Shown: piece after piece, positions 34,387 through 60,103 of the stretch
How positions within the stretch are numbered: position 1 is the stretch's first letter
How the letters are laid out: each line of letters starts with the position of its first letter
Assembly (NCBI GenBank): GCA_963922205.1
Contig: CAWUHX010000136.1
Span: forward strand, 558,001-622,000
DNA: 64,000 nt
Direction: 5' to 3'
From: Romanomermis culicivorax
Taxonomy: Eukaryota; Nematoda; Enoplea; Mermithida; Mermithidae
Notes under the pieces: model-generated
Databases searched by the model: none
The model's input: only the letters and a program-made list of their open reading frames with translations
What the model was told of the DNA's origin: nothing
Translations under genes and position numbers: made by a program

Positions 34387-34472
34387 CTGTAAATTAGAGA
34401 TCATTAAAGCTGGTGACTTATAAGGATATCTGATTTTCAGACCTGAAATGTCAGAAAAAGAAGGCAGTATAC
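34387..34472 (-). other. Element B predicted 86-nt intron between gag and X
   Basis: Minus-strand donor CTAG|GTATACTGCC and acceptor CTCTAATTTACAG|ATTCC. Its length, donor and codon phase equal those of the intron in element A despite strong divergence of the intron body. Confidence 0.65.
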
Positions 34473-36177: not shown

Positions 36178-36199
36178 TCGAGCCTGTGAAGCTATCCCA

Positions 36200-37557: not shown

Positions 37558-38973
37558 TGTCACATTCTACGGCATGTCACGTGTATGACATGTTGGACTT
37601 GGGAGAGCTGGGGAGGTTTGGGTATCTCATCAGGTAATACCGTGTTTTAGACGTCACATTGATGGTGAACCATATCAGATTGATCCTATTACAGTGAGTA
37701 ATAGGCTGTGACTCCTGATGGATACTGGCATTTTCCCCAGGCTTCCCAAGTTGCCGTTGGGGCCTAACCTGGCAAATGGTGGCTATAGAGAGGTCTATAG
37801 TTGGTTCTCTGGTGTTGTCCTTGGGGTCTTGCTGTAGGGTAATGGACAACGCTGCCAGGCTAGGTGCGACAATCCCCGAGTCCTACTCAGTAAGAGTGGG
37901 GACAGGGTCACCGGTGAAATGACCTAATTTGTGGGACCCGATTATGAACCAGACAGCCCCTTTTTTTAGCCCGAGCCTGAGAGGTGGAGGCCCTACTTAT
38001 CTGTGGACCTGGGAAACCGACTTAGGAAGGATTTCCCAACAAATACCCCACAAATAACAATAATCCCCTGAGAAGACTCACCTAGTCCTGTTTCTCAAGC
38101 GATTCGACGAAAACGGGCGGCAAGTCCCTGGATACTTTCGGTCTTCTGGCACTGGGGCGGGGATGCGATCCACAAACGTCCTAGCGGCGAGCGGGAGGCG
38201 ATTCTCCAACGTTTTCTTCACGAACCAGGGGCGGTCGGACACCTGGCACTGATGGGCAGCGGGTACTGTAGGCGGTAAGCGGCAGACGCAGTGAACAAGG
38301 GTAAATTTATGCAAATTTATTGGTAATAAGGCGGCGGATGCACAGGTGTATAATAAAATATGCAAATTGACAAGAAGGCGGCGGACACGGAGTTACAACC
38401 TGACGAGAGCTTGGTGAACCCAAGAATGAGCCAAAAACTAATAGAAACATGTCCTTTTAAGGACATGTTTGGCTACAGCTGCAGCTTGGGCGGAGTTTCT
38501 CGGCACTCAAGCTAACTTCTGCAGCTAGACGCGATGCAGAAGATGCCTATGAGCACATAGACATTTTTTCGTTCACATGCGTTTAGCACTGAGGCCGGCT
38601 GCAGTGCCTATGCTAAGCATATGAACGTCTTTAGCTAAAACTTCTTAGCTAGTCGTTTTTGCGTAACAAAAACGACGCTAATTTTGATGATAAGAGGTGC
38701 ATGGAGTGCACCAAAAATAGCCATGTGCTCGTGGAGCACGACTGGCGGAAGTTTTTAGCTAAAGGGCCTACTGTAGTCCGCGTTTGTAAAGAAATAAAAA
38801 TACAACAAAACGAAACATAGAAATGCATGAAAAATATAAAACGAACATAAAATGCATGTGTAAAAATAAAATAAACAAAAGCATGATCGAGTAATAAACG
38901 AAACATGAAAAAATAACAAAATGTCGGCATGATCGGAATCACGTGACGTTGGAGAATTGAGCGGCACGTGACA
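37558..38973 (-). repeat. Element A 3' LTR
   Basis: 1,416 bp, starting TGTCACATTC and ending GGCACGTGACA. It differs from the other LTR at about 18 positions noticed by eye and has the same length. CACGTG E-box palindromes lie near both ends (GGCATGTCACGTGTATGACA; ATCACGTGACG and GGCACGTGACA). Confidence 0.95.
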
Positions 38974-39530
38974 CGGCGGTCCTTCGAAAAAGGGCGTCCT
39001 CGTCCTTGCAGTGATTAGTAGTGAGGTTTGTGCGGCGCGTCCGTGGTCGTAGGTCGTTCCAAAGTGTGACGGCGGGTGGTCGAATAGGTCCGTTGGGTTG
39101 TCGGCGGATGGAGCCTTCTTTGATCGTAATTCGCTCGACAGTATGGTAACCGGAAATTGTTGATGCGTGAAGTTGCAGACATTGAATATCCTGTGCGAAA
39201 GTCTAGAACACAGAAACGAAAAAATTTTCAGAGCAAGATGTAGGCTATCGCAGCGGATGCGCCCAGTGAGGTACAGATTGTCGGGTTATCGCAGAGGATG
39301 CACCCAGTGAGGTACAGATTGTCGGGTTATCGCGGAGGATGCACCCAGTGAAGTGTAGGCTATCGCGTGAGGATGCGCCTAAGGCGTGACGCTTTGGTTG
39401 CTGGACATTCTCTTCTATCCACTAAGATCCAGCATGGACAAGAGTGGATACTTCGTGAGGGGCATGGCGGTCCTTCGAAAAAGGACGTCCTCGTCCGTAA
39501 GCGGGGACAATGAAGAGAATGCATCTTGAA
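38974..39530 (-). other. Element A region between integrase stop and 3' LTR, with direct and tandem repeats
   Basis: Non-coding. GGCGGTCCTTCGAAAAAGG(G/A)CGTCCTCGTCC occurs next to the LTR (about 38975) and again at about 39467. Three copies of an about 42-bp unit (GTGAGGTACAGATTGTCGGG, TTATCGCAGAGGATGCACCC) lie at 39238-39380. No clean polypurine tract borders the LTR. Confidence 0.75.
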
Positions 39531-40901
39531 TTAAGGGTTGGGGACCTCTGCATCAAGATGTGGGTCAATCAAATTCGGTGTAAAGTCCCGGCTCATTGAA
39601 GGATACAATAAGGGTGCCGAATCTGTTGCTGGTGAAGTGGGAGGTGTATCCTCTGCTTCACTCGGTGGTTCAGGGGACACGTAAAGTCGAAGCTGGTTGA
39701 CATGTACAGTGTCTTCCTGATCCGTCTCGAGACGAAGTGTGACATTGGGGTATGCCACACCTGTTACAAGGTAGGGCCCATTGTAGATGGGCAGCAATTT
39801 AGGAGTGAGTCCACGTTTGCTGGAGGTGCGCAGTTTGAGCACCCAATCGCCTACTGTGTACGAGACATCATTTGCCTTCCGGTCGTACGACCGTGCATAG
39901 GCCTCCTGTGCTTTCTCAATCCGACTCTGGATTAAGGTTAACGCATTCGTGAAATGACGTTTGACCTCCATATCATATGAGGAAACATTAATGATATGGG
40001 CCGGAGGGTTGAATGAGAGCGCGGCATCAACAGGGAGCATGGGTGTGCGACCGTACATGAGTTCAAAAGGCGAGTACCCTGTTGACTCATTCATGCTGAT
40101 ATTGACGGCAAACACAGCGTATGGTAGGTGTTCATCCCAATCGGTATGTCCTTGATGAACATACATACGTAGCCGTGTGGCTAGCGTCTGATTAGCTCTT
40201 TCCACCTCGCCGTTGGTCATCGGATGATAGGCGGTAGAGTGGATCTTCTTCGTTGCGCAGATCGCAGTGATCTCAGTCATCAGTTTTGATGTGAAATCAG
40301 TGCCACGATCTGACTGAAGAATCTGCGGTGCCCCATGCCGGCAGACAATTTGCGTTACAAACAGTCGGGCTATGGTGTGCGCAGTGATGTCCGGAGTAGC
40401 AAAAGCCTCGACCCATTTCGTAAAGTAATCGATGAAGACTACGATGAAACGGTTGCCAGCTTCGCTAGTGGTCATTGGTCCCATACAGTCGACACCTACC
40501 CGATGAAACGGTCCTGTGATGGTGACAGGTTTCAGGGTCGCAGTGGTTTTCTGTCGAGCGGGCTTATTCTGTTGGCAAAGATCACACCGCTGACAGAAGG
40601 ACTTGACTTCCCGACTGAGGGAAGGCCAGTGGTATCTGCGAGCAATGAGCCGCGCAGTACGTTTAGCACCAAAGTGTCCAGCTAAGATGTCATCATGATG
40701 AGCCCGGATAATGGTAGTAACCATGGATCTGGGTATAACAATCTTATTGGACTCGCCTGTCCATTTCTGAAGAACATTATCCAACAGATGGTAGCCTCGC
40801 ACATCATTCTGGTCGCCCAGAGGCTTAAGAGAGCGAATGATGTCGGCTAACTCTGGATCCTCCAGCTGAGCAGCGAAAAGGTCGGGGTGCTGCGCACCAA
40901 C
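39531..40901 (-). CDS. Element A integrase
   Basis: Retroviral-type integrase that would join the cDNA to host DNA in the nucleus. First ATG at 40802; the frame is open back to the TAG at 40902-40904. Seen: zinc-binding N-terminus (H...HFGAKRTARLIARRYHWPSL ... CQRCDLC), catalytic triad in VGVDCMGPM, LQSDRGTDF and NGEVERANQ (D, D, E), then a C-terminal GPY/F-type motif (LLPIYNGPYLVTG) and an acidic Pro/Ser-rich tail. It is in the same frame as the upstream RNase H but separated by TAA and TAG. How it is expressed is unclear: readthrough, reinitiation or splicing. No chromodomain is seen. Confidence 0.93.
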   Translation of the reverse strand, partial: VGAQHPDLFAAQLEDPELADIIRSLKPLGDQNDVRGYHLLDNVLQKWTGESNKIVIPRSMVTTIIRAHHDDILAGHFGAKRTARLIARRYHWPSLSREVKSFCQRCDLCQQNKPARQKTTATLKPVTITGPFHRVGVDCMGPMTTSEAGNRFIVVFIDYFTKWVEAFATPDITAHTIARLFVTQIVCRHGAPQILQSDRGTDFTSKLMTEITAICATKKIHSTAYHPMTNGEVERANQTLATRLRMYVHQGHTDWDEHLPYAVFAVNISMNESTGYSPFELMYGRTPMLPVDAALSFNPPAHIINVSSYDMEVKRHFTNALTLIQSRIEKAQEAYARSYDRKANDVSYTVGDWVLKLRTSSKRGLTPKLLPIYNGPYLVTGVAYPNVTLRLETDQEDTVHVNQLRLYVSPEPPSEAEDTPPTSPATDSAPLLYPSMSRDFTPNLIDPHLDAEVPNP

Positions 40902-40916
40902 CTATATCTCGGCTTA
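40902..40916 (-). other. In-frame TAA and TAG between RNase H and integrase
   Basis: Reading down the pol frame the codons are TCT TAA GCC GAG ATA TAG, after which the frame stays open into integrase. Element B has TAT at the TAA site but a TAG at nearly the same place. These are either lesions or a recoding/termination point. Confidence 0.8.
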
Positions 40917-43900
40917 AGACTCTGATCGTACCGGGCGCTCCGCGCCAACAGTGATCGGTGCTGAATTACTTGAACGCGCTAGGTGCTGCACACCATCGGT
41001 CAAGGTTCTTGATCTCGCCAGGTGCTGCGCACCATCGGTGATCATCATAACATGCTCCTCAGGTCTGTAGAGGGGAGTTTCATCGATACTCTGACCGGTG
41101 AGGGAGTTAGGATCCGGCAGGCGTGATAATGCATCAGCATTACCATTAGACTGACCTTTTCGCGGCCAAATTGTCAGTTTGAATTCAGCGAGCACGAGTC
41201 CCCACCGAGCGATCCGAGCAGAGGAGTTAGGCTTCTCCAACACTGCTTTGACCGCCGTATGGTCAGTCTGAACGACCACCTCGTGCTGGAAGAGGTATGG
41301 TCGAAAGTGCTTGACGAAATGGACAACAGCGAGAGTTTCCAGTTCTGTAATGGAATAGTTTTTCTCGGCCGCTGTTAACCCTCGGCTGGCGTACGCGACA
41401 GGATGGTCGTATCCATGTTTGTCTAACTGGCTGAGAACCGCTCCTATCCCCGAAATACTTGCATCAGTTTGAAGGATAGAGGATTTCGAAAAGTCCGGAT
41501 GGCGCAGGATAGGAGGGTTGGTCAGCAGGCGGCGGAGTTCATCGAACGCCTCCTGCTGAGATTTTGACCACTGGAAAGTAGTTTCCTTCCGTAAGAGCTT
41601 GGTGAGTGGCTCGCTGAGCCGGGCACAACCAGGGATGAAACGCCTGTAATAAGACACAAGGCCTAGGAAGGACTTGATGTCTTTGGCGTTTTGTGGAATG
41701 GGTAGGTTTTGGACGGCGGCCAGCTTGGCTTGGTCAGGTTCTAGGCCGCTCTGTGAGATGCGATAGCCTAGGTACTTTACCTCTGAGTGCGCGAATTTGC
41801 ACTTGCTCAGTCTGAGCTTCATTCCACCCCGGCGAAGACGGGCGAACACATCTGCCAGGCGCTCAAGCATTTGGGTGTGAGAGTTCCCGAACACCAAAAT
41901 GTCATCGAGATAGGTCAGAACCGTGCGCCATTGGATACCAGTAAGGAGGAGGTCCATAAGGCGTTGAAATGTCCCTGGCGCGTTGCACAAACCGAAAGGC
42001 AAATAATTGAATTCGTAAAGTCCAATAGGCGTATTAAATGCCGTCTTTTCCTTATCCGCCTCGGCAATCGGGATTGACCAATAAGCGTTAGCTTGGTCAA
42101 GGGTAGTGAAATACTTCATACCCTTGAGTGTGTCAAGGATGTCATCTATCCGTGGGAGTGGGTAGACATCCTTCTTCGTGACCTCGTTAAGACCATGAAA
42201 GTCAACACACATATGGTGAGAACCATTTTTCTTGCGCACCAGGACAGTATTAGTAGCCCACGGTGACGTGCTCGGCCGAATAATACCTTTCTCCTGGAGC
42301 GCCTTGACCTCTTGCATGATGAGATCCTTTTCCTTAGGTGAGGACCGGTAAGGGAAATGGCGGACTGGGCGGGCATCGCCCGTGCTGATTTCGTGCTGGA
42401 CGAGATCAGTGGAACCTGTGTCCTTTTCATCAAGAGCGTAAAGGTCAGTATATGCAACCAGCAGATCGAGTAAGGCTGCCCGGTCCTGAGGGGAGATGTC
42501 CGGTGAGATTACAGCATTGGCCTCGACCCACTGACGATCGAGGACGGTGTCTGAGTCGACCGGTGATTCCCGTGAGGGCTCACTATGCATTTGCACATGA
42601 CCGATGGTCATGTGTGGGTAGAGAACCACGGAATGAGTATTCGGGTTGACTACTTGAAGTGGTATGTGACCGTTGGTCACGCTACTCACGCTTCCAGCAA
42701 AATATACGTGTCTTTGAGATCCGGTGAGGTGCTTCGGAAAGAAGGCCACCTCAGGTACGTTCGTATAGATTGGCGGAACAGGTACAGTGAATCGTGTCAG
42801 GGAGCGAGGCTCCAGAATTACCAAGTCCTTCAGGGGCAAGGCGCCGCGGGCAGAAGGTGGGCTGTGGATGGGACCGTCACAGGGGATTCTACTTTCTTTG
42901 AACTGGAGGAAGGATTTCTCCCAGTTCAAGCTGACACAATTGAACCGGCCTAGGAAGTTTGTTCCGAGGACCAGTTCAGCTGAACAATTCTCTTGTATTT
43001 GGACCTGAATCCGTTCAGAGACATCAGCCACTGTAACCGTGATGTAGGCTGCTCCTAGCAGTGGGATCGGGGACCCATTGGCTGCGATAGGACGAGCCCT
43101 GGTTGGTGAAAGTGACAAGTTGGGCAGCTGGGCCGCTAACTTGTGGTCCAGGAGTGAGAAAACAGCTCCTGTGTCGACCAGTGCCTTTGCTTCTACCCAG
43201 TTGTTGAGGAGAACTTTGATATGGGGTGTCCGAATATCATTTGGGTAAAAAGCAGAGACCACATGACCGGAATCAGGTGTGGTGGCACCACTAGTGTGTT
43301 TGGTCTTACTGGACCGCTTTGGAATCGGCAGTCCCGTACGACGTAGTAGACCTACTAGAGCGTATCCGATGGAGGGTTCCGGGTCGTTCAGAAGGGTGGA
43401 CTCATCCTGTACCGTGAGTACCTGGTCTGAGTGGTCCCTTGGGCTCTGAGTAGCTCCTAGTGATTCAATCTCGGTGTCGGATAGCGGTGGCGCGTTTGGC
43501 ACGGGTGATGCCGGAGCATCTAAATCACTTGGCTCACGGTATCGGCCTTTCTCTAGCGTGACTGGAGAGTTTCCAGGCGGAGGTCGAGGGCAACCTGACC
43601 CGTGCAAGGTCGACAAATGACGACTTGCCCGTCTAGAAGAGGCCCGGGATCCCCTGGTTGACCCACGTGATGAGGCAATTGAGGAGGCCCGTGAGTGTGC
43701 CCAAGAGATGGACGAAGCCCTGGACCGCGATCGTGATCCCGACCTGTGTGAGTTTCGCGAGAGAGCACAGGTGTTCTCCCACCAGGGGTCGATCTGGTCA
43801 ATCTCCGGCGTGGTCAGCAGGAGGGGTAATTCTACCGCGTCCAGCCGACAAACATTACGTTGGTAGTCAAACATAATGTTCTTGAACTGTTCTAAGAAGT

Positions 43901-44261
43901 CCAGTCCGAGTATGAGGTCAACAGGTGCCCAGAACGGAGACGTGGTCTTGCAGACATGGAGATGTATATCGATCTGTGTGTTCGGCTGGCGGTTTCCGGG
44001 CAACATGATTTCATATGGTCCCGAAAGGATGGTATGAATGGCTTTACCATTGATGCTCATCAATGGGTTAAAGTCGTGATGTTGCTGGAACCCCATGACC
44101 GCCTTCGGACTTTCTTTAGCCAAGGCCTTATGAAGACGTTGGCTAATGATAGTGCGGGGGCAACCCGTGTCAAGGAAAGCAGGAGTTTCCTTGGTATCCA
44201 GCAGCACGACGAAACACGGTGTGATTCGGTCAAGCTGGGAGGGCACATCATTTTGCACGTA
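40914..44261 (-). CDS. Element A pol (left copy): protease 1, SR linker, protease 2, reverse transcriptase, RNase H
   Basis: C-terminal part of a 2,464-codon open frame, in frame with gag and env. Protease 1: [12 protein letters not shown] (DTG at 44163-44171) and [12 protein letters not shown] linker rich in Arg/Ser (43770-43600). Protease 2: [13 protein letters not shown] (DTG at 43167-43175) and [13 protein letters not shown] (about 42330-41740): [44 protein letters not shown], and YLDD (41901-41912). RNase H (about 41465-41100): [40 protein letters not shown]. All catalytic motifs look intact. Two retropepsins in one pol are not usual. Protease 2 is next to RT as in ordinary Ty3/gypsy elements, so protease 1 is the extra one. 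Confidence 0.92.
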
Positions 44262-46094
44262 GTGAAAACCGATCCAGCGTTGGACTTTGCGGTAAAGACC
44301 CAACGGGGAGAAACGGCTAACAAACCTGACCTGTTTGCTCCGCAGACGGTAGCTGAGATAATAAGATACACCAAGATAGGCAAGGTATCCGCCACCGATC
44401 AGCACTGTCAGGGTAATTAGGATGTTAAAGATCAACTGGACCGGCCCGCTCAGGACAGCATGCAAGCCCTGGGCGAGGGTGTGTTGTTGACCCGTAATAA
44501 CATGGTTTGCTGCCAAACCGACACCTTCCAGAGAGGCCTTGATGTCGGTTCCTACCCCTGCAAAGGCCTGGTAAATGGCGTCTGGTTGCAGGGATAGACC
44601 AGCGGTAAAGTTTACCAGCCGGTTGAGTACTGCTTCAATTTGCTCAGTCTTGTAAACGTACTGTTTAAAGAAGGCAAAGTTTGAAGGGGTCATCGCCAAC
44701 TGGTCATGGAAGAGCGCCGGTGCCTCAAAGTGAGTGATGTTGAAACGCTGTTTCCAGAAGAGTTCCAGTGGGATGTGGCTCACATGGACCGCGCCAGACT
44801 CAGTAAACCAGCCCGATCGATTTCGGAAAATCCCTGTAAAGTGACACGGCACAATTGGGCTAGATTTAATGAGATCTGGACCACCGGGGGTGGCGAAGTA
44901 GATGGTGCCACCAACCTGTACAGGTAAGTACTTGTAGCAAACGTTTCCCACCCGGTACGAGTGGTAAACGTAGGTGGCGTTGACCTTCTGACACAGCCAT
45001 ATTGTCAGTGCATCGCCTGTGAATTCCGCTGTCAGGTCATTCCTCTGGAGGAATGCCCGGGCACCCAAGGTAGGGTCAAAGCGAAGCAACTGCCAAGTCA
45101 GATCAAGATAGCGTTGAGCGTGAGAGCAGAGCTCAAGCCACGTGAACCGGAAACCGTTAATTTCCGATTCCTTGATCTGCTGAGCCAGGTAGTTCAGTTT
45201 GGCATTGACAGGATCGGGACGGGTGTCCTTTGCCATTCTGAACAAATTTTGGGTCAAATTGTATCTCCCGTGGATGCGAAGGAGAAGACCCTGATCCGTC
45301 CGGACTGTGGTGGAACTTAGTTCTGGGCACAGTTGGAAGACGCGGGAGTTTCCCGGGATCTTGAGGGCAACCTGTAGATCATCGATGATGACGTGGTTCC
45401 CTGACATGGACGCAGTGTAATTTCCCTTGGGGTGATAATGACACCGCGCCGTGAAGTATTGTGCAGGCCAGACAATGACCCCGTCTAGAGTAGTGCACTG
45501 GCCTGCAGTGGGACTGCATCCACCTACATCGCCTAAGGTGCTTAGGGCCGTAGTGCCGTCCCACGAAGCGACTTGTCCCTCCTCGATGAAGAGGTTAGTC
45601 ACTGTCTTGCAGACGTCGCTGCAGCACCATTCGTACATCACTTCCAATGTTTGGTTTGTGCTATAAAAGCCAGGGCGAATGCCGACAAGTTTTTGTGAAC
45701 CAAACATCTTAGTGCGATGTGCTAGCGTGCATGCCGCAGGCGCTAGGTGCTGAGTGGTAATGACCTCTGCAGTGATGCCACTAGAGCCGAAGAAACCAGT
45801 GTTGGTGCAGACTTTGCGGGAGCGCAATGTGCATTTCCATGCTGTGGTTGTAATCGGGTCTGAACTAGGGACATACACCGTAACATTCATGCGCCGCGGG
45901 CTCCATGAAGATTGCGGTGGTTTACACTCTACATGCTGGGGTAACTCAAGTGGATGTCCGCTTCTTGAGAGACCGTAAAATTGATACTGAGCCACCGGTG
46001 CTGACAAACTCACCCCTAGAAACAGTGATGCTACCAAGGTCAATTTTATTATCAAAAACAACTGTACAAACGTGATTTGTAAGTGTTCACTCAT
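44262..46094 (-). CDS. Element A envelope-like glycoprotein (left copy), between gag/X and pol
   Basis: About 610 residues from an in-frame ATG (46094) 28 nt after the X stop, also continuous with the gag and pol frame. Seen: an N-terminal hydrophobic signal-like segment, a Cys-rich ectodomain ([28 protein letters not shown]), about eight N-glycosylation sequons (NVT, NQT, NYT, NLT, NAT, NRS, NIT, NFT), and a strong transmembrane segment near the C-terminus ([19 protein letters not shown]) followed by a basic tail leading into protease 1. The order of Cys, FFGS, EEGQV, LGD, C...GQC and VW recalls mononegavirus/chuvirus-type glycoproteins, but that is an impression without a search. Role: possible membrane fusion or cell-to-cell transfer. 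Confidence 0.8.
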
Positions 46095-46122
46095 TTTCAC
46101 AAATCTGGCCTGAGGGGCAGTG

Positions 46123-46907
46123 TCAGATTTCTTCTTCGTCGCTGTCAGATAAGATGGGTTCCTGGCCGGGGAAATCGAGGACCAAATCACCACACGGGTG
46201 GATTTCCCGGAGGATACCAACTTTTGGCGACCGTGGGGCGACTGCCGTTGGGAACGGAGATTCCTCAACGATGCTGACATCTTCGTTAACCGGACATGAG
46301 GTCTCATCGACGGCCATGTGTTCGACGACGGGCGACTTGGTCGCAGCGGTCGGAGATGTCTCTTGGGCTGGCGCCGGCGATTTGGCTTGGGCTGTTGCCG
46401 AAGATGTATTTTGGGCTGGTGCCGACAGTGGACTTCGGGCTGGTGCCGACATTGTGGTTTGGGCTGTTGCCGGCGGTGTAGGATCATTTGCGGGTTCCTT
46501 GGCCGGGGGCGAGGAAAGGGTAATGTCCATTTTGGTTGGCGATGCCGCGGCAACATGTGGCGCTGCTGTCGGTGATGTAGCCGCGACAGCAGGCAGGAGG
46601 ATCCGACTGGCCTGTTCGACTGCTCGGCGGATGGCATCGACCGAAGGCGAGGATGGCTCCCCATCCAATAAGAACTTCTCGAGGGGCGAGATTGTGATAG
46701 TCCCATTGGCAATGAACTCGAGTGCCCGTCGGGCGACATCGGGTCGTAAGAGTCGCATTGATACAAGTGCCGCGAGCACCACGTCGGCGGCCGTGAGCGC
46801 TTCGACATGCGATGGCTCGTTGAGCAGAGTCCATGGCAAATGCGGGTATTTCTTGGCCAGGTCAACTGACCAGATGGCCAACATCGTGTCTTGGACGGGT
46901 GATGGCG
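46123..46907 (-). CDS. Element A ORF X (left copy), Gag-X C-terminal part after splicing
   Basis: A frame of about 261 codons that differs from the gag/env/pol frame. N-terminal block: [44 protein letters not shown]. The middle is Ala/Pro/Ser/Thr-rich. The C-terminal block is [20 protein letters not shown] and an acidic end SDSDEEEI. Both end blocks are conserved at protein level in element B, which argues that the frame is translated. Removing the 86-nt intron joins it in phase to gag. No known family is recognised. It may be a Gag extension or matrix/assembly domain. Confidence 0.7.
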
Positions 46908-46993
46908 CTGTGAACAAGAAATCAATAGAGTCGTGGACTGAGATAGATTTCTGGTTCCTACTCTAGGATCACCTGAAGAGGAAGGTAGTATAC
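46908..46993 (-). other. Predicted 86-nt intron joining gag to ORF X (left copy)
   Basis: Minus-strand donor TTTGTCAG|GTATACTACC and acceptor TTTCTTGTTCACAG|CGCC with a pyrimidine-rich tract. Gag ends after codon position 1 and X resumes at position 2, so splicing keeps the frame. 86 nt is not a multiple of 3, so retention keeps the other frame (env-pol). Confidence 0.75.
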
Positions 46994-48272
46994 CTGACAA
47001 ATTCATGGGCTCGACCTGGTCGAGGACTTCTGTAGCTGAATCCGTGGGGATCGAAGGCGGTGGTCCTGGAGGGAGGATGCGGGCTGGTGGCGCCGAAGAC
47101 GTCCTGTTTGCGGCTGGAGCTGGCTCGGCAGTCTTAATTTTGGGGATGCGATACGATGAGAAGATGTTAGCGTGGCCAACAAACTGCGGTGTCATCGAGG
47201 GGTCCAGAGTGACCGGCATCGCATACCTTGGTGGTGGTGGTGGCAGCGGTATGTCCGATACATATATCGGTACGGGTACCTGAGCTGCTTGGACCACCGA
47301 AAATCCAATACTGATTACGCAGACAGGATAACACTGTTGTGAAGAATCTGTCAGGTGTTCAGCAAGTGCCTCATCATCCAGGTCAAGAGGATCTGGATGA
47401 AGAGGGCCATCGGTAGCCCCAACGGGGTTGTTGTGATGTATGGGCTGCCGATATTGGTTTCCCATCCCGTTAGGAGGGTGATAACCATTTCTCTGTTGAT
47501 ACACATTTGTCCCCTGGGAAGAATAACCAGTATTTTGGTAGACATTCTCACCCGTGTTTGCCGGATTGCGCTGCGGACAGGCAGTTGATCGGTGCACTCG
47601 CACTTGACGACAATGAGGGCATGGCCTATCACATCGGTCCGTGGGGTGGGCACGTGTACGGCAAAAATAACAGCGACCACCGTTAGCGGCGTTGTTACCG
47701 GGAGGGGCACCGGTGGGACGCTGGGCCCGGCAGTCGGCATCGCTATGTGTACACAGTCCGTGGAAGGAGCACGTTTGAAGGTGTGCTCCTGATGAGCGTC
47801 GCCCGGCGGACTGATTTGGTGTCGATGGCTGTGGAGGCAGCGTCTGTTGGATTGGCGCTGGTGCACGTTGCTGGGCCGTGAGCTTCGCTAGGTGGGCCGT
47901 GAGCCTGGCCATTTCCCCTTTCAAGCGGCGAACCTCATCGGCGGAGGATGATGACGTTGGAGCGTTGCTCTGACGACCGTTTGCGCTTCTGTTAGGCATA
48001 TTGGGATTATATCCGGCGTGTTTAGATTCTGAAGAGAAAACGGCGTTAGATGGAGCAGTGTACCGGATCTCGTCCCAAAAGATTTGGGATTCTGCGTAAC
48101 AGGCTGCCTTGAGTGTCTCTTCAAGAGTCGTAAACTCCCTAAACTTGATAGTATCTCGGAGGACCGGCTTCAATCCTCGCAGAAAGATAGGTTTGATGAT
48201 AGAATCTCGGACATCTGTCGCGAGATCTGGATACGCTACCCTGGATAGTCTCTTGAGGTGCTCAAGGTAGAC
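46994..48272 (-). pseudogene. Element A gag, C-terminal part (left copy, cut at duplication junction)
   Basis: Starts within the capsid-like region at the tandem-duplication junction (VYLEHLKRLSRVAYPDL onward). It continues through IFLRGLKPVLRD, a short coiled-coil-like stretch (about 47930-47870) and two CCHC zinc knuckles (CYFCRTRAHPTDRC; CPHCRQVRVHRSTAC). The N-terminal part of gag is absent from this copy. In the right copy gag is complete. Confidence 0.85.
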
Positions 48273-50581
48273 TCCATAAGGCGTTGAAATGTCCCTGGCG
48301 CGTTGCACAAACCGAAAGGCAAATAATTGAATTCGTAAAGTCCAATAGGCGTATTAAATGCCGTCTTTTCCTTATCCGCCTCGGCAATCGGGATTGACCA
48401 ATAAGCGTTAGCTTGGTCAAGGGTAGTGAAATACTTCATACCCTTGAGTGTGTCAAGGATGTCATCTATCCGTGGGAGTGGGTAGACATCCTTCTTCGTG
48501 ACCTCGTTAAGACCATGAAAGTCAACACACATATGGTGAGAACCATTTTTCTTGCGCACCAGGACAGTATTAGTAGCCCACGGTGACGTGCTCGGCCGAA
48601 TAATACCTTTCTCCTGGAGCGCCTTGACCTCTTGCATGATGAGATCCTTTTCCTTAGGTGAGGACCGGTAAGGGAAATGGCGGACTGGGCGGGCATCGCC
48701 CGTGCTGATTTCGTGCTGGACGAGATCAGTGGAACCTGTGTCCTTTTCATCAAGAGCGTAAAGGTCAGTATATGCAACCAGCAGATCGAGTAAGGCTGCC
48801 CGGTCCTGAGGGGAGATGTCCGGTGAGATTACAGCATTGGCCTCGACCCACTGACGATCGAGGACAGTGTCTGAGTCGACCGGTGATTCCCGTGAGGGCT
48901 CACTATGCATTTGCACATGACCGATGGTCATGTGTGGGTAGAGAACCACGGAATGAGTATTCGGGTTGACTACTTGAAGTGGTATGTGACCGTTGGTCAC
49001 GCTACTCACGCTTCCAGCAAAATATACGTGTCTTTGAGATCCGGTGAGGTGCTTCGGAAAGAAGGCCACCTCAGGTACGTTCGTATAGATTGGCGGAACA
49101 GGTACAGTGAATCGTGTCAGGGAGCGAGGCTCCAGAATTACCAAGTCCTTCAGGGGCAAGGCGCCGCGGGCAGAAGGTGGGCTGTGGATGGGACCGTCAC
49201 AGGGGATTCTACTTTCTTTGAACTGGAGGAAGGATTTCTCCCAGTTCAAGCTGACACAATTGAACCGGCCTAGGAAGTTTGTTCCGAGGACCAGTTCAGC
49301 TGAACAATTCTCTTGTATTTGGACCTGAATCCGTTCAGAGACATCAGCCACTGTAACCGTGATGTAGGCTGCTCCTAGCAGTGGGATCGGGGACCCATTG
49401 GCTGCGATAGGACGAGCCCTGGTTGGTGAAAGTGACAAGTTGGGCAGCTGGGCCGCTAACTTGTGGTCCAGGAGTGAGAAAACAGCTCCTGTGTCGACCA
49501 GTGCCTTTGCTTCTACCCAGTTGTTGAGGAGAACTTTGATATGGGGTGTCCGAATATCATTTGGGTAAAAAGCAGAGACCACATGACCGGAATCAGGTGT
49601 GGTGGCACCACTAGTGTGTTTGGTCTTACTGGACCGCTTTGGAATCGGCAGTCCCGTACGACGTAGTAGACCTACTAGAGCGTATCCGATGGAGGGTTCC
49701 GGGTCGTTCAGAAGGGTGGACTCATCCTGTACCGTGAGTACCTGGTCTGAGTGGTCCCTTGGGCTCTGAGTAGCTCCTAGTGATTCAATCTCGGTGTCGG
49801 ATAGCGGTGGCGCGTTTGGCACGGGTGATGCCGGAGCATCTAAATCACTTGGCTCACGGTATCGGCCTTTCTCTAGCGTGACTGGAGAGTTTCCAGGCGG
49901 AGGTCGAGGGCAACCTGACCCGTGCAAGGTCGACAAATGACGACTTGCCCGTCTAGAAGAGGCCCGGGATCCCCTGGTTGACCCACGTGATGAGGCAATT
50001 GAGGAGGCCCGTGAGTGTGCCCAAGAGATGGACGAAGCCCTGGACCGCGATCGTGATCCCGACCTGTGTGAGTTTCGCGAGAGAGCACAGGTGTTCTCCC
50101 ACCAGGGGTCGATCTGGTCAATCTCCGGCGTGGTCAGCAGGAGGGGTAATTCTACCGCGTCCAGCCGACAAACATTACGTTGGTAGTCAAACATAATGTT
50201 CTTGAACTGTTCTAAGAAGTCCAGTCCGAGTATGAGGTCAACAGGTGCCCAGAACGGAGACGTGGTCTTGCAGACATGGAGATGTATATCGATCTGTGTG
50301 TTCGGCTGGCGGTTTCCGGGCAACATGATTTCATATGGTCCCGAAAGGATGGTATGAATGGCTTTACCATTGATGCTCATCAATGGGTTAAAGTCGTGAT
50401 GTTGCTGGAACCCCATGACCGCCTTCGGACTTTCTTTAGCCAAGGCCTTATGAAGACGTTGGCTAATGATAGTGCGGGGGCAACCCGTGTCAAGGAAAGC
50501 AGGAGTTTCCTTGGTATCCAGCAGCACGACGAAACACGGTGTGATTCGGTCAAGCTGGGAGGGCACATCATTTTGCACGTA
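48236..50581 (-). pseudogene. Element A pol (right copy): protease 1, protease 2, truncated RT
   Basis: Identical in content to the left copy through [16 protein letters not shown]. The duplication junction then moves the frame into gag sequence and a stop follows after about 13 residues. RT therefore lacks YLDD, the thumb, RNase H and integrase. Both proteases are intact. Confidence 0.88.
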
Positions 50582-52414
50582 GTGAAAACCGATCCAGCGT
50601 TGGACTTTGCGGTAAAGACCCAACGGGGAGAAACGGCTAACAAACCTGACCTGTTTGCTCCGCAGACGGTAGCTGAGATAATAAGATACACCAAGATAGG
50701 CAAGGTATCCGCCACCGATCAGCACTGTCAGGGTAATTAGGATGTTAAAGATCAACTGGACCGGCCCGCTCAGGACAGCATGCAAGCCCTGGGCGAGGGT
50801 GTGTTGTTGACCCGTAATAACATGGTTTGCTGCCAAACCGACACCTTCCAGAGAGGCCTTGATGTCGGTTCCTACCCCTGCAAAGGCCTGGTAAATGGCG
50901 TCTGGTTGCAGGGATAGACCAGCGGTAAAGTTTACCAGCCGGTTGAGTACTGCTTCAATTTGCTCAGTCTTGTAAACGTACTGTTTAAAGAAGGCAAAGT
51001 TTGAAGGGGTCATCGCCAACTGGTCATGGAAGAGCGCCGGTGCCTCAAAGTGAGTGATGTTGAAACGCTGTTTCCAGAAGAGTTCCAGTGGGATGTGGCT
51101 CACATGGACCGCGCCAGACTCAGTAAACCAGCCCGATCGATTTCGGAAAATCCCTGTAAAGTGACACGGCACAATTGGGCTAGATTTAATGAGATCTGGA
51201 CCACCGGGGGTGGCGAAGTAGATGGTGCCACCAACCTGTACAGGTAAGTACTTGTAGCAAACGTTTCCCACCCGGTACGAGTGGTAAACGTAGGTGGCGT
51301 TGACCTTCTGACACAGCCATATTGTCAGTGCATCGCCTGTGAATTCCGCTGTCAGGTCATTCCTCTGGAGGAATGCCCGGGCACCCAAGGTAGGGTCAAA
51401 GCGAAGCAACTGCCAAGTCAGATCAAGATAGCGTTGAGCGTGAGAGCAGAGCTCAAGCCACGTGAACCGGAAACCGTTAATTTCCGATTCCTTGATCTGC
51501 TGAGCCAGGTAGTTCAGTTTGGCATTGACAGGATCGGGACGGGTGTCCTTTGCCATTCTGAACAAATTTTGGGTCAAATTGTATCTCCCGTGGATGCGAA
51601 GGAGAAGACCCTGATCCGTCCGGACTGTGGTGGAACTTAGTTCTGGGCACAGTTGGAAGACGCGGGAGTTTCCCGGGATCTTGAGGGCAACCTGTAGATC
51701 ATCGATGATGACGTGGTTCCCTGACATGGACGCAGTGTAATTTCCCTTGGGGTGATAATGACACCGCGCCGTGAAGTATTGTGCAGGCCAGACAATGACC
51801 CCGTCTAGAGTAGTGCACTGGCCTGCAGTGGGACTGCATCCACCTACATCGCCTAAGGTGCTTAGGGCCGTAGTGCCGTCCCACGAAGCGACTTGTCCCT
51901 CCTCGATGAAGAGGTTAGTCACTGTCTTGCAGACGTCGCTGCAGCACCATTCGTACATCACTTCCAATGTTTGGTTTGTGCTATAAAAGCCAGGGCGAAT
52001 GCCGACAAGTTTTTGTGAACCAAACATCTTAGTGCGATGTGCTAGCGTGCATGCCGCAGGCGCTAGGTGCTGAGTGGTAATGACCTCTGCAGTGATGCCA
52101 CTAGAGCCGAAGAAACCAGTGTTGGTGCAGACTTTGCGGGAGCGCAATGTGCATTTCCATGCTGTGGTTGTAATCGGGTCTGAACTAGGGACATACACCG
52201 TAACATTCATGCGCCGCGGGCTCCATGAAGATTGCGGTGGTTTACACTCTACATGCTGGGGTAACTCAAGTGGATGTCCGCTTCTTGAGAGACCGTAAAA
52301 TTGATACTGAGCCACCGGTGCTGACAAACTCACCCCTAGAAACAGTGATGCTACCAAGGTCAATTTTATTATCAAAAACAACTGTACAAACGTGATTTGT
52401 AAGTGTTCACTCAT
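50582..52414 (-). CDS. Element A envelope-like glycoprotein (right copy)
   Basis: Same as the left-copy env, with no mismatch noticed. In frame with complete gag upstream and protease 1 downstream in a 2,265-codon open frame. Confidence 0.8.
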
Positions 52415-52442
52415 TTTCACAAATCTGGCCTGAGGGGCAGTG

Positions 52443-53227
52443 TCAGATTTCTTCTTCGTCGCTGTCAGATAAGATGGGTTCCTGGCCGGGGAAATCGAGG
52501 ACCAAATCACCACACGGGTGGATTTCCCGGAGGATACCAACTTTTGGCGACCGTGGGGCGACTGCCGTTGGGAACGGAGATTCCTCAACGATGCTGACAT
52601 CTTCGTTAACCGGACATGAGGTCTCATCGACGGCCATGTGTTCGACGACGGGCGACTTGGTCGCAGCGGTCGGAGATGTCTCTTGGGCTGGCGCCGGCGA
52701 TTTGGCTTGGGCTGTTGCCGAAGATGTATTTTGGGCTGGTGCCGACAGTGGACTTCGGGCTGGTGCCGACATTGTGGTTTGGGCTGTTGCCGGCGGTGTA
52801 GGATCATTTGCGGGTTCCTTGGCCGGGGGCGAGGAAAGGGTAATGTCCATTTTGGTTGGCGATGCCGCGGCAACATGTGGCGCTGCTGTCGGTGATGTAG
52901 CCGCGACAGCAGGCAGGAGGATCCGACTGGCCTGTTCGACTGCTCGGCGGATGGCATCGACCGAAGGCGAGGATGGCTCCCCATCCAATAAGAACTTCTC
53001 GAGGGGCGAGATTGTGATAGTCCCATTGGCAATGAACTCGAGTGCCCGTCGGGCGACATCGGGTCGTAAGAGTCGCATTGATACAAGTGCCGCGAGCACC
53101 ACGTCGGCGGCCGTGAGCGCTTCGACATGCGATGGCTCGTTGAGCAGAGTCCATGGCAAATGCGGGTATTTCTTGGCCAGGTCAACTGACCAGATGGCCA
53201 ACATCGTGTCTTGGACGGGTGATGGCG
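52443..53227 (-). CDS. Element A ORF X (right copy)
   Basis: Second copy of ORF X. This is the one lying behind a complete gag, so the spliced Gag-X product of about 830 residues would come from here. Confidence 0.7.
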
Positions 53228-53313
53228 CTGTGAACAAGAAATCAATAGAGTCGTGGACTGAGATAGATTTCTGGTTCCTACTCTAGGATCACCTGAAGAG
53301 GAAGGTAGTATAC
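53228..53313 (-). other. Predicted 86-nt intron joining gag to ORF X (right copy)
   Basis: Same donor (CAG|GTATAC) and acceptor (TTCACAG) as the left copy. This is the intron that would act on the full-length transcript first. Confidence 0.75.
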
Positions 53314-55033
53314 CTGACAAATTCATGGGCTCGACCTGGTCGAGGACTTCTGTAGCTGAATCCGTGGGGATCGAAGGCGGTGGTCCTGGAGGGAGGATGC
53401 GGGCTGGTGGCGCCGAAGACGTCCTGTTTGCGGCTGGAGCTGGCTCGGCAGTCTTAATTTTGGGGATGCGATACGATGAGAAGATGTTAGCGTGGCCAAC
53501 AAACTGCGGTGTCATCGAGGGGTCCAGAGTGACCGGCATCGCATACCTTGGTGGTGGTGGTGGCAGCGGTATGTCCGATACATATATCGGTACGGGTACC
53601 TGAGCTGCTTGGACCACCGAAAATCCAATACTGATTACGCAGACAGGATAACACTGTTGTGAAGAATCTGTCAGGTGTTCAGCAAGTGCCTCATCATCCA
53701 GGTCAAGAGGATCTGGATGAAGAGGGCCATCGGTAGCCCCAACGGGGTTGTTGTGATGTATGGGCTGCCGATATTGGTTTCCCATCCCGTTAGGAGGGTG
53801 ATAACCATTTCTCTGTTGATACACATTTGTCCCCTGGGAAGAATAACCAGTATTTTGGTAGACATTCTCACCCGTGTTTGCCGGATTGCGCTGCGGACAG
53901 GCAGTTGATCGGTGCACTCGCACTTGACGACAATGAGGGCATGGCCTATCACATCGGTCCGTGGGGTGGGCACGTGTACGGCAAAAATAACAGCGACCAC
54001 CGTTAGCGGCGTTGTTACCGGGAGGGGCACCGGTGGGACGCTGGGCCCGGCAGTCGGCATCGCTATGTGTACACAGTCCGTGGAAGGAGCACGTTTGAAG
54101 GTGTGCTCCTGATGAGCGTCGCCCGGCGGACTGATTTGGTGTCGACGGCTGTGGAGGCAGCGTCTGTTGGATTGGCGCTGGTGCACGTTGCTGGGCCGTG
54201 AGCTTCGCTAGGTGGGCCGTGAGCCTGGCCATTTCCCCTTTCAAGCGGCGAACCTCATCGGCGGAGGATGATGACGTTGGAGCGTTGCTCTGACGACCGT
54301 TTGCGCTTCTGTTAGGCATATTGGGATTATATCCGGCGTGTTTAGATTCTGAAGAGAAAACGGCGTTAGATGGAGCAGTGTACCGGATCTCGTCCCAAAA
54401 GATTTGGGATTCTGCGTAACAGGCTGCCTTGAGTGTCTCTTCAAGAGTCGTAAACTCCCTAAACTTGATAGTATCTCGGAGGACCGGCTTCAATCCTCGC
54501 AGAAAGATAGGTTTGATGATAGAATCTCGGACATCTGTCGCGAGATCTGGATACGCTACCCTGGATAGTCTCTTGAGGTGCTCAAGGTAGACTATCGCGA
54601 ACTCTGTCGGCTTCTGCAGTCGATCTTGGATCAGCTGCTGATGCAGATCAGAGTCGGGCCCTACCGGAAAATCTCTCCGTAGAAAAGCCGTAAACTCTTC
54701 GTAGCGGGTAGGTATTGGAGTGCTGCTGCTAAAGTCCCGGTAGGAGGCAAGAGCAGGACCCGTGACGCATGACTCCAGAAAGGCGATTTTATACGCATGA
54801 TCCGTTTCGCTAACACCCTGGAGTGTAAAGAAACGGGTAAGATGCGACATAAAATCTGCGATAGACTCACCAAAAGCACCGGAGAAGGTTGGAGGGGCCA
54901 TAAAGCTGGACACGGGAGGGTGCCTCCGACCATTCATGGCCTCTAACTTTTGGTTGAGGGGTCCAAGAGCATTCTCAAATGCTGCCTGGACCTTGTTCTC
55001 GATCTGTGAAGGGAGATCAGCTTCGGACTTCAT
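53314..55033 (-). CDS. gag: Element A gag (complete)
   Basis: Structural protein of the particle. About 573 codons from ATG 55033 to the splice donor. N-terminal region MKSEADLPSQIENKVQAAFE with helical character, then the Retrotrans_gag-type capsid segment (AFGESIADFMSHLTRFFTLQ; YEEFTAFLRRDF; YLEHLKRLSRVAYPDL; IFLRGLKPVLRD), a short coiled-coil-like stretch, a further Cys/His cluster (CSFHGLCTHSDADC), two CCHC zinc knuckles for RNA binding (CYFCRTRAHPTDRC; CPHCRQVRVHRSTAC), and a Pro-rich C-terminal part. Without splicing the frame continues into env and pol. Confidence 0.9.
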
Positions 55034-57530: not shown

Positions 57531-58149
57531 AGCATGACCCGTTAAGTCTATGGTCTAGATGCAACAACCCGAGAATAGAGGAGAACAGACCTTACAGTAA
57601 GTAGAAATGAGAAAGAGAGAGAACCTTATGTGAGGGTGTCATACTGTAGCGGTGACATCAGAAAACAGAAAATTTTTTTTTTGACACCGCTCAGATGACT
57701 GAGGAAAAGAAATATAGAGAAAAGAACCAAAAACGGGGAATATGAGATTTGGACATACGCGTGTTAAATGTGTACACAGTAGGTGTAAAATTTTTGGGGC
57801 CGGAAAAGTGAGCGATTCCGACAGTTTCCGCCGACATACAAAAATACTGTACACAATTAACAGATCGCAGCCACGTATGACGTCCAGAATCATATGTGGA
57901 GGGTGTACGGTATCATGGGGTCATGGACCACTGACAGTCAGGAGAGGCCCTCAACCCCTACAGCTGTGATACCAGTACCCGCGTATGGGTATACTGTAGT
58001 TACAGTACGGGAATGGGCACAGGCGTACTGTAATGGCACCCACCCGGAGGGCTACAGTATACCACCCAAAAGTAGAGAAGGGGGGGAATAAAGGGAAAAG
58101 GTACAGATAAGGTAGTTTACAACACAGATTAAGTATGCAGAATGTACAG

Positions 58150-58640
58150 AATTAATCAGAGGAGAAATACAGAATACTCGATATATAACTCAACTCTGGG
58201 ACAAATAGCTCGACTCTGAGGATAAATAACTCGACTCAGAGGGAATTTATTACTCATAGGGGGTTATACACACGCATGAGATATTTATATACACATGTAG
58301 ATCACATTTAGATCACTCGTAAGGGCAAATCCCGTCTTACAGTAATTAAAACTCGATGTTACGGGATAAATTCCCGACCTACAGTAATAACTCTCGGTGG
58401 CACGGGAAAAATTTCCGACTTACAGTAATAACACGCGACTTGGGGGGGGGGGGTTTCCGACCTACAGTAGCGGTAATCCGAAATAAGGGACATTCCCGAC
58501 CCATTAGGCAGTAAACCCGAATTTGGGGGGTCTCCGACTTATTGGATGGCTAGTACCCGATTTTAAGGGGGCTTGTCCGACTTAAAATGGGAATCGACCC
58601 GACCTGGGGGTAGTTCCGACCCAAGGGTGAAGTTTTTACA
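58150..58640 (-). repeat. Second leader repeat array (TCCCGACCTACAGTAATAA-type units)
   Basis: Units such as GACTCGACTCTGAGGATAAA and (T/C)CCGAC(C/T)TACAGTAATAA recur at about 30-55 bp. A run of 12 G lies at about 58444-58455. Related phrases occur in element B's leader at 60740-61180. Confidence 0.65.
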
Positions 58641-58667
58641 CTTAAGGGCGAGTGCCAGACTTTAAGG

Positions 58668-58687
58668 TCGATTTTCCAGCCTCGCCA
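58668..58687 (-). promoter_or_regulatory. Element A primer-binding site
   Basis: Directly after the 5' LTR the minus strand reads TGGCGAGGCTGGAAAATCGA. TGG pairs with a tRNA CCA end, and the next base would pair with a G discriminator, which fits Arg or Ser tRNAs. The exact primer is not assigned. Confidence 0.65.
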
Positions 58688-60103
58688 TGTCACATTCTAC
58701 GGCATGTCACGTGTATGACATGTTGGACTTGGGAGAGCTGGGGAGGTTTGGGTATCTCATCAGGTAATACCGTGTTTTAGACGTCACATTGATGGTGAAC
58801 CATATCAGATTGATCCTATTACAGTGAGTAATAGGCTGTGACTCCTGATGGATACTGGCATTTTCCCCAGGCTTCCCAAGTTGCCGTTGGGGCCTAACCT
58901 GGCAAATGGTGGCTATAGAGAGGTCTATAGTTGGTTCTCTGGTGTTGTCCTTGGGGTCTTGCTGTAGGGTAATGGACAACGCTGCCAGGCTAGGTGCGAC
59001 AATCCCCGAGTCCTACTCAGTAAGAGTGGGGACAGGGTCACCCGTGAAATGACCTAATTTGTGGGACCCGATTATGAACCAGACAGCCCCTTTTTTTAGC
59101 CCGAGCCTGAGAGGTGGAGGCCCTACTTATCTGTGGACCTGGGAAACCGACTTAGGAAGGATTTCCCAACAAATACCCCACAAATAACAATAATCCCCTG
59201 AGAAGACTCACCTAGTCCTGTTTCTCAAGCGATTCGACGAAAACGGGCGGCAAGTCCCTGGATACTTTCGGTCTTCTGGCATTGGGGCGGGGATGCGATC
59301 CACAAACGTCCTAGCGGCGAGCGGGAGGCGATTCTCCAACGTTTTCTTCACAAACCGGGGGCGGTCGGACACCTGGCACTGATGGGCAGCGGGTACTGTA
59401 GGCGGTAAGCGGCGGACGCAGTGAACAAGGGTAAATTTATGCAAATTTATTGGTAATAAGGCGGCGGACGCACAGGTGTATAATAAAATATGCAAATTGA
59501 CAAGAAGGCGGCGGACGCAGAGTTACAACCGGACGAGAGCTTGGTGAACCCAAGAATGAGCGAAAAACTAAAAGAAACATGTCCTTTTAAGGACATGTTT
59601 GGCTACAGCTGCAGCTTGGGCGGAGTTTCTCGGCGCTCAAGCTAACTTCTGCAGCTAGACGCGATGCAGAAGATGCCTATGAGCACATAGACATTTTTTC
59701 GTTCACATGCGTTTAGCACTGAGGCCGGCTGCAGTGCCTATGCTAAGCATATGAACGTCTTTAGCTAAAACTTCTTAGCTAGTCGTTTTTGCGTAACAAA
59801 AACGATGCTAATTTTGATGATAAGAGGTGCATGGAGCGCACCAAAAATAGCCATGTGCTCGTGGAGCACGACTGGCGGAAGTTTTTAGCTAAAGGGCCTA
59901 CTGTAGCCCGTGTTTGTAAAGAAATAAAAATACAACAAAACGAAACATAGAAATGCATGAAAAATATAAAACGAACACAAAATGCATGTGTAAAAATGAA
60001 ATAAACAAAAGCATGATCGAGTAATAAACGAAACATGAAAAAATAACAAAATGTCGGCATGATCGGAATCACGTGACGTTGGAGAATTGAGCGGCACGTG
60101 ACA
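58688..60103 (-). repeat. Element A 5' LTR
   Basis: 1,416 bp, same ends as the left LTR (TGTCACATTC ... GGCACGTGACA). Should carry the promoter of the element. No TATA box assigned. Confidence 0.95.

What the first reader, a model, noticed from the sequence alone, without database searches (positions are those of the whole stretch)
37558..60103. LTR retroelement with the envelope gene between gag and pol
Seen: in element A the env-like frame (signal-like segment, Cys-rich glycosylated ectodomain, C-terminal membrane anchor) follows gag/X and precedes two proteases, RT, RNase H and integrase, and there is no env after integrase. Element B, strongly diverged, has the same order, so it is not a one-copy rearrangement. 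Established: in retroviruses, errantiviruses and other env-bearing LTR elements env is 3' of pol. Inference: a separate lineage that captured env into the gag-pol junction, with the membrane protein made as part of one giant polyprotein.
Basis: partly seen in the sequence, partly recalled or inferred. Interest (0 to 1): 0.92.

Follow-up and report, generated by a model that had tools for sequence, protein, structure and literature searches.

The report
Retroelement with envelope before polymerase
A large family of virus-like jumping genes in an invertebrate genome carries its cell-entry-type glycoprotein gene in the middle of its long protein-coding frame, between the capsid and the enzymes, instead of at the end where such genes are described.

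Summary
Element A is a Ty3-type LTR element (TG..CA LTRs, 4-bp TSD) with the order gag, env, protease, RT, RNase H, integrase; no room for env after integrase. A is not a clean specimen: a 6,320-bp internal tandem duplication (env twice) and in-frame stops between RNase H and integrase. Element B is a decayed relative with the same order.

The host genome (359 Mb) holds many copies: 53 of 93 scored lie in one open frame of 3,084-3,116 aa ending in integrase. Env matches Monjiviricetes_fusion in 8 of 8 sequences tried (five clades), and more weakly bornavirus G and herpesvirus gB (class III-like). In 30 env loci of five other clades (about 33-46% identity to A), protease-RT lies just downstream of env in 29. 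In five loci whose upstream frame I read (three clades), a gag-tail-like stretch runs into env without a stop.

New here: A and B also carry X, a gene overprinted in the -1 frame between gag and env. Best reading: a Metaviridae lineage that makes class III-like Env inside one Gag-Env-Pol polyprotein from an internal signal peptide. Expression is inferred, not measured.

The parts
58688..60103 (-). 5' LTR of element A, TG..CA, followed by TGGCGAGGCTGG as a possible primer-binding site
37558..38973 (-). 3' LTR of element A (18 of 1,416 sites differ from the 5' LTR); 4-bp target-site duplication ATTT
53283..55033 (-). gag of A (first ATG 55033); Ty3_capsid about 54865-54419; zinc-knuckle-like motifs at 53992 and 53941
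52443..53204 (-). X: accessory ORF (253 aa) overprinted in the -1 frame of the giant ORF; ATG and TGA present in 74 of 74 rows
50561..52414 (-). env of A, first copy: signal-like segment, Cys-rich ectodomain with Monjiviricetes_fusion match, membrane anchor, short basic tail
44241..46094 (-). env of A, second (duplicated) copy, identical protein
50096..50575 (-). PR1: divergent aspartyl-protease-like domain (LDTGC, LILGLDFL); seen only in A and B
49136..49585 (-). PR2: aspartyl protease (VDTGA, LVLGTNFL), the one shared by the other clades; second copy at 42816-43265
40917..42353 (-). RT and RNase H of A
39534..40901 (-). integrase of A (H2C2 and rve), same frame as RT but after in-frame TAA and TAG
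41953..48272 (.). first unit of the 6,320-bp tandem duplication inside A (other unit 48273-54592)
48273..54592 (.). second unit of the tandem duplication
34807..36285 (-). element B, gag (decayed, in-frame stops)
33771..34441 (-). element B, X remnant; gag-frame TGA overlaps the X ATG at about 34363
32479..33730 (-). element B, env remnant (N-terminal two thirds; C-terminus deleted)
31707..32471 (-). element B, PR1 and linker
30795..31736 (-). element B, C-terminal RT and RNase H
29437..30788 (-). element B, integrase (frameshifted)

Best explanation
This is a lineage of Ty3-type (Metaviridae-like) LTR retroelements that carries a class III-like viral fusion glycoprotein between the gag zinc-knuckle region and the protease, in one continuous gag-env-PR-RT-RH-IN reading frame. 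Most likely (inferred): the single product is made on membrane-bound ribosomes; the signal segment that starts Env acts as an internal signal; Gag stays cytosolic, the Env ectodomain enters the ER lumen, the anchor stops transfer, and PR-RT-RH-IN stay cytosolic behind a short Env tail. Signal peptidase and the element's protease would then separate Gag, Env and Pol. The A/B branch added X, a second protein read in the -1 frame of the gag-env linker, and PR1.
For: Order, shown: Pfam on pieces of A; B colinear; 29 of 30 env loci of other clades have PR-RT directly downstream; in the two clades read further, RT-RH then IN follow. One frame, shown: 53 of 93 integrase-bearing copies in 3,084-3,116-aa open frames; 10 of 30 env loci, from three clades, open across the whole 3.5-kb stretch; the upstream frame of L093, L097, L105, L108, L113 runs into env without a stop, with zinc knuckles in that frame in four of these (all but L097, whose gag tail I judged by eye). 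Selection, shown (codons with stops or gaps left out): A-B dN/dS env 0.19, gag 0.20, PR1+linker 0.12, RT/RH 0.17, IN 0.14. Env real, shown: PF24664 in 8 of 8, BDV_G in 4 of 8, Glycoprotein_B in 3 of 8; all 15 Cys of A env invariant in those 8 sequences. Readthrough of the X region: among variants shared by at least 3 copies, 0 make a stop in the giant frame against 3.9 expected (P 0.013), while singletons show 7 against 7.5; ATG at A's env start only in 9 of 74. Topology and processing are inferred from this.
Against: No RNA or protein data. The giant frame's amino acids in the X region are not conserved (dN/dS 1.01 A-B; 1.36 A versus 18 copies), so its openness rests on a modest count (P 0.013 to 0.044 by sharing threshold; 0.116 for all variants). 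The first 45 codons of env showed no clear constraint within the family (ratio 0.91, few changes). In B the gag frame ends in TGA overlapping the X ATG, which fits separate ORFs in that branch. Some clades do have in-frame Met within 40 residues before the signal segment (1 in most clade-1 loci, 2-3 in L096 and L103). The class III assignment is weak at the level of solved structures (gB E 0.092), and the single-sequence AlphaFold model was useless (mean pLDDT 36). L120 has a frame break between RH and IN, and 20 of 30 env loci have a stop in the env frame somewhere in the stretch held.
Confidence: 0.68

Rival explanations
1. Env, or Env-Pol, is expressed from a spliced subgenomic mRNA; the open frame joining gag to env is incidental.
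For: Retroviral env is normally spliced (recalled). An acceptor-like CTGCCCCTCAG lies just before env and is present in 74 of 74 rows. Giant-frame amino acids in the X region are unconstrained.
Against: An ATG at A's env start is present in only 9 of 74. The gag-to-env frame is open in many copies of several clades. Stop-making variants are missing among variants shared by at least 3 copies.
Confidence: 0.25
2. In the A/B branch gag, X and env-pol are three coupled ORFs (stop-start reinitiation at TGATG, then +1 shift or reinitiation into env); A's giant frame is recent readthrough.
For: B has TGATG at the gag/X junction; X is under purifying selection (dN/dS 0.18-0.24); X stop present in 74 of 74.
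Against: The gag-frame codon there is CGA in 72 of 74 rows, GGA in 1 and CAA in 1, never TGA. Loci of other clades run from a gag tail into env without X, so fusion looks ancestral and B the exception.
Confidence: 0.15
3. One-copy rearrangement or assembly artefact: the tandem duplication moved env in front of pol.
For: A does hold a 6,320-bp duplication, 99.97% identical.
Against: X, env and PR lie in order inside one duplication unit; B has the order without a duplication; copies with open frames of 3,084-3,116 aa and 29 of 30 loci of other clades show the order independently of A.
Confidence: 0.01
4. The glycoprotein is a passenger (an endogenised viral fragment) without function in the element.
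For: Jingchuvirales glycoprotein fragments beside Gypsy elements are reported in arthropods (PMC10084718, passages).
Against: Same position in the five other clades seen, dN/dS 0.19 A-B, invariant cysteines in 8 sequences, open frames in many copies.
Confidence: 0.03

Closest known systems
Dingle, Ty3/gypsy-like element of the annelid Dimorphilus gyrociliatus (PMC7854359, passages)
   Same: Ty3-type pol with an env resembling herpesvirus glycoprotein B.
   Different: [quoted passage not shown] here env precedes protease and is in frame with gag.
Anakin, BEL/Pao elements with chuvirus glycoprotein (PMC7642597, passages)
   Same: LTR retroelement with a glycoprotein of Monjiviricetes (Chuviridae) type.
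   Different: BEL/Pao, not Ty3. The passages I saw do not state the position of its glycoprotein. The follow-up reports no clear evidence of such capture by Gypsy (PMC10084718, passages).
Errantivirus (Metaviridae; ICTV profile PMC7879559, whole text)
   Same: Ty3-type LTR element with gag, pol and env.
   Different: [quoted passage not shown]
TelKA of bdelloid rotifers (PMC5408684, passages)
   Same: LTR element with a fusion protein acquired from negative-strand RNA viruses.
   Different: Paramyxovirus F type (class I), as ORF3; the paper speaks of ORF3 as downstream of pol.
Flavivirus-type polyproteins with internal signal peptides (recalled, no call)
   Same: Works like: cytosolic capsid, internal signal, lumenal envelope protein, cytosolic enzymes in one polyprotein.
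   Different: No homology claimed; here the vehicle is an LTR retroelement.

Membership tests
Metaviridae / Ty3 LTR retroelements | Ty3-type capsid, RT-RNase H and PR-RT-RH-IN order | tested here: met
   Ty3_capsid E 8.5e-7, bits just under cut-off (29 against 29.1); RT_RNaseH, rve and H2C2; best solved relative Ty3 RT, E 5e-86, well above retroviruses
Metaviridae / Ty3 LTR retroelements | LTRs with short target-site duplication | tested here: met
   1,416-bp LTRs, TG..CA, ATTT on both sides
Metaviridae / Ty3 LTR retroelements | placement in an RT phylogeny | not tested
   no reference RT set was at hand; the search for homologous proteins was off
Errantivirus and other env-bearing Metaviridae | env downstream of integrase (ICTV profile) | tested here: not met
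   557 bp between IN stop and 3' LTR in A; env precedes PR-RT in 29 of 30 loci. Stretches 3' of IN were read only in A and in part in L119 and L120
Monjiviricetes-type viral fusion glycoprotein | match to PF24664 above the curated cut-off | tested here: met
   43.6 bits against 27 in A; 68 of 68 scored genomic hits over the cut-off; 8 of 8 members match at E up to 0.01. The match covers only the middle of the profile
Monjiviricetes-type viral fusion glycoprotein | class III fold | tested here: inconclusive
   Glycoprotein_B in 3 of 8 (best E 0.0026); solved gB E 0.092; AlphaFold model failed
Troyka | CG..CG termini and 3-bp TSD (PMC12440569, abstract and first part) | tested here: not met
   TG..CA and 4-bp TSD
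Anakin (BEL/Pao) | BEL/Pao-type pol | tested here: not met
   capsid, RT and RH match Ty3-type models and the Ty3 structure

The most novel reading that the evidence does not exclude
An old lineage of LTR retroelements uses a flavivirus-like strategy: one Gag-Env-Pol polyprotein threaded through the ER membrane by an internal signal peptide, so that Gag and Pol are delivered as the cytosolic neighbours of Env in a fixed ratio. One branch also overprinted a whole accessory gene (X, about 230-253 codons) on the gag-env linker, where the main frame is kept open but its amino acids are free.
Probability: 0.45. Interest if true: 0.92.

Novelty: new variant of a known kind. Interest (0 to 1): 0.82.

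Why it matters
Env 3' of pol is stated as the rule for env-bearing Metaviridae (ICTV profile). A multi-clade lineage with env inside the gag-pol frame shows another way to build an env-bearing retroelement. It raises testable questions: how one polyprotein crosses a membrane, how the Gag:Env:Pol ratio is set, and whether a spliced env can be dispensed with. The overprinted X gene is a good case for studying gene birth, with a frame kept open beneath it. Searches for env only downstream of integrase would miss such elements.

Tried and rejected
Early hypothesis, dropped: after seeing B's TGATG I thought A's giant frame was a one-copy stop loss; copies from the genome contradicted this. Alternative genetic code for the stops in B: looked at by eye and rejected, since the residues opposite B's stops in A are mixed (Q, Y, R, W, D, L among them). 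A conserved RH-IN stop with readthrough was considered from A and B alone and dropped, because 53 of 93 copies are open there. Structure by AlphaFold: single sequence, mean pLDDT 36, not used and not sent to fold search. No relative in viral contigs or genome contigs, both scans by exact short words. X: no significant Pfam, PHROG or PDB relative. A's capsid piece was cut in a wrong frame and its silence means nothing. B's LTRs were not cleanly delimited. Troyka, Anakin and errantivirus membership tested and not met. An RT phylogeny and a count of env-less Ty3 families could not be done.
Full report
WHAT IS THERE. On the minus strand, element A runs from a 5' LTR (60103-58688) to a 3' LTR (38973-37558). 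The LTRs are 1,416 bp with 18 differences, have TG..CA ends and are flanked by ATTT on both sides. Pfam on separate pieces gives, in transcription order, Ty3_capsid (E 8.5e-7, a hair under its cut-off), Monjiviricetes_fusion (E about 1e-11), gag-asp protease, RVT_1, RNase H, Integrase_H2C2 and rve. The closest solved RT is Ty3's, E 5e-86. Only 557 bp separate the integrase stop from the 3' LTR. Element B (about 28.6-37.5 kb) is a decayed relative, with stops, frameshifts and two deletions, and is colinear with A by tblastn.

A IS NOT A CLEAN SPECIMEN. 41953-48272 is repeated head to tail as 48273-54592 with 2 differences in 6,320 bases. The duplication shifts frame, which explains the two overlapping frames of 2,319 and 2,479 aa. 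The env protein is present twice, identically. Between RNase H and integrase A has in-frame TAA and TAG. The order X, env, PR lies inside one duplication unit, so the duplication did not create it.

THE FAMILY. The window lies in an unnamed 359-Mb genome. A search with A's integrase scored 93 of 8,440 first-look candidates. Besides A itself (100%) these are 96-97% identical, and 53 of 93 lie in one open frame of 3,084-3,116 aa. By geometry such a frame reaches back over gag; I did not read any of them end to end. I read the gag-end/X/env-start piece of 80 copies; 7 were dropped for lack of a full match, leaving 73 plus A. The gag/env frame is open through this piece in 63 of 74. An ATG at A's env start is present in only 9 of 74 (TTG 58, TTC 6, TTA 1), so in most copies read Env has no ATG there.

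X, AN OVERPRINTED GENE. In 53204-52443 the conserved frame is the -1 frame. A-B mismatch rates at X codon positions 1, 2, 3 are 0.313, 0.253, 0.563; dN/dS is 0.18 in X against 1.01 in the giant frame. Within the family it is 0.24 against 1.36 (third frame 1.57), A versus 18 copies, with L009 (no match) and L014 (A-like) left out. X is intact in 71 of 74; its ATG and TGA are present in 74 of 74; its lengths are 663, 687, 711, 735 or 759 nt, steps of 24, save one of 671. The giant frame is nevertheless kept open: of 92 variants shared by at least 3 copies none makes a stop in it, against 3.9 expected from variants of the same kind at other sites (P 0.013); shared by at least 2, 1 against 4.9 (P 0.029); by at least 5, 0 against 2.9 (P 0.044); singletons 7 against 7.5; all 270 variants 8 against 12.3 (P 0.116). 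The third frame shows no significant depletion (4 against 6.1 at the 3-copy threshold). This is what translation through the region predicts, but the counts are small. At the place where B has a gag-frame TGA overlapping the X ATG, 72 of 74 rows have CGA, 1 GGA and 1 CAA. X was not found (E up to 0.01) in 30 loci of other clades.

OTHER CLADES SETTLE THE ORDER. PF24664 searched in the genome scored 68 of 2,320 candidates, all 68 over the cut-off, up to 75 bits, against 0 of 14 control genomes. I had loci for 30. In 30 of 30, env is homologous to A's, main pieces at about 33-46%. Clustering the core at 80% gives groups of 13, 10, 3, 3 and 1, beside A. In 29 of 30 (all but L094) the PR2-to-RT stretch follows env on the same strand. 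The env frame is open across the whole 3.5-kb locus in 10 of 30, from three of the clades (6, 2 and 2 loci); in the other 20 a stop lies in that frame somewhere in the stretch held. Upstream in the same frame, L093, L097, L105, L108 and L113 read from a gag-tail-like stretch through a linker into a hydrophobic segment and env. Zinc-knuckle motifs were found upstream in 14 of 30 loci, 10 in the env frame (two of these with a stop inside the motif) and 4 in another frame; many loci do not reach far enough upstream, and none was found in the 10 loci of the L097 clade. Further downstream, in the two clades I could read, RT-RH and then IN follow; in L119 in one frame with the first stop after IN, in L120 with a frame break before IN. 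Env, RT and IN agree in rank: A is nearer the L105/L120 clade (env 46%, RT-RH 65%, IN 55%) than the L097/L119 clade (env 42-43%, RT-RH 58%, IN 48%). This fits one old acquisition followed by common descent, though three clades make no phylogeny.

THE GLYCOPROTEIN. A's env has a signal-like segment, 8 sequons, 15 Cys and a membrane anchor. All 15 Cys are invariant in an alignment of A and 7 sequences from four other clades. Of these 8, 8 match Monjiviricetes_fusion (best E 3.5e-20), 4 Borna G (best 7.5e-6) and 3 herpesvirus Glycoprotein_B (best 0.0026). In A the Monjiviricetes match covers res 296-430, the middle of the profile. The alignment profile's best solved match is a herpesvirus gB, weak (E 0.092; the only other row, a ribosomal protein, has E 0.78). 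I therefore call it class III-like and not class III. AlphaFold on the single sequence failed. Selection: A-B dN/dS 0.19 over 415 codons of the part that B keeps; variants shared by at least 2 of 20 rows are 7, 4, 21 by codon position. The first 45 codons alone, around the signal segment, show no clear constraint within the family (ratio 0.91, about 4 changes per pair).

HOW IT MOST LIKELY WORKS. Shown: order, continuous frame in many copies and in several clades, purifying selection on gag, X, env (N-terminal two thirds), PR1 with linker, C-terminal RT/RH and IN; PR2, the env C-terminus and the RT N-half could not be tested against B. Inferred: translation as one polyprotein, internal signal peptide, Gag and Pol cytosolic, Env lumenal, release by signal peptidase and PR. 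In L095, L108, L113, L093 and L105 there is no in-frame Met in the 40 residues before the signal segment, which fits; in most loci of the L097 clade there is one and in L096 and L103 two to three, which leaves room for internal starts. The main rival is splicing of env-pol.

COMPARISON WITH WHAT IS KNOWN. The ICTV profile states that Metaviridae env, where present, is downstream of integrase (PMC7879559, whole text). Dingle of an annelid is a Ty3/gypsy element with a gB-like env downstream of integrase (PMC7854359, passages). Anakin is BEL/Pao with a chuvirus glycoprotein (PMC7642597, passages), and its authors later reported no clear evidence of such capture by Gypsy (PMC10084718, passages). 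I saw no description of env between gag and protease in the listings of ten full-text searches of open-licence papers or in the passages I opened; subscription papers, Repbase and most preprints are not in that library, so priority is not established.

HOST. Exon-like stretches resembling an arginine kinase and a GABA-type Cys-loop receptor lie in the left third of the window, so the host is most likely an invertebrate animal; I did not identify it.

On recount I mended the distance after integrase (557, not 558), the codon at the gag/X junction (an earlier script had scored the wrong three bases), and the reach of the zinc-knuckle and selection statements. None of this called for a change of odds.

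Noticed in passing
window 12380-12871 + (arginine kinase) and 4416-4724 + (Cys-loop receptor): Exon-like stretches matching solved arginine kinases (E 1e-37) and GABA/glycine receptors (E 2e-25); similar-looking stretches at 8307-8777, 11197-11664 and 15030-15332 were judged by eye only. They point to an invertebrate host.
   Followed up: partly
window 60411-61097: About 64% similar to A's long leader (57838-58625): a remnant of another related element right of A, so A may sit inside or beside an older relative.
   Followed up: no
window 55034-58687: A's leader before the first gag ATG is 3,654 bp long, with 57% purines on the plus strand, so pyrimidine-rich in the transcript.
   Followed up: no
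G000:C180 404-17640 and C25 197813-206684: Env matches spaced by exactly 8,365 bp three times over with one TGA each, and a pair 8,371 bp apart: tandem arrays of whole elements or an assembly effect.
   Followed up: no
window 46076-46966 and 52396-53286 +: A 296-aa open frame antisense to X, probably a by-product of X's composition.
   Followed up: no
window 18542-18749 and 19400-26500: A 17-bp tandem array with GC-rich surroundings, and dispersed and inverted repeats that could be short DNA transposons.
   Followed up: no
window 50096-50575: PR1, a second divergent aspartyl-protease-like domain right behind the Env anchor, is under selection (dN/dS 0.12 with linker) and was seen only in A/B; its role is open.
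   Followed up: partly
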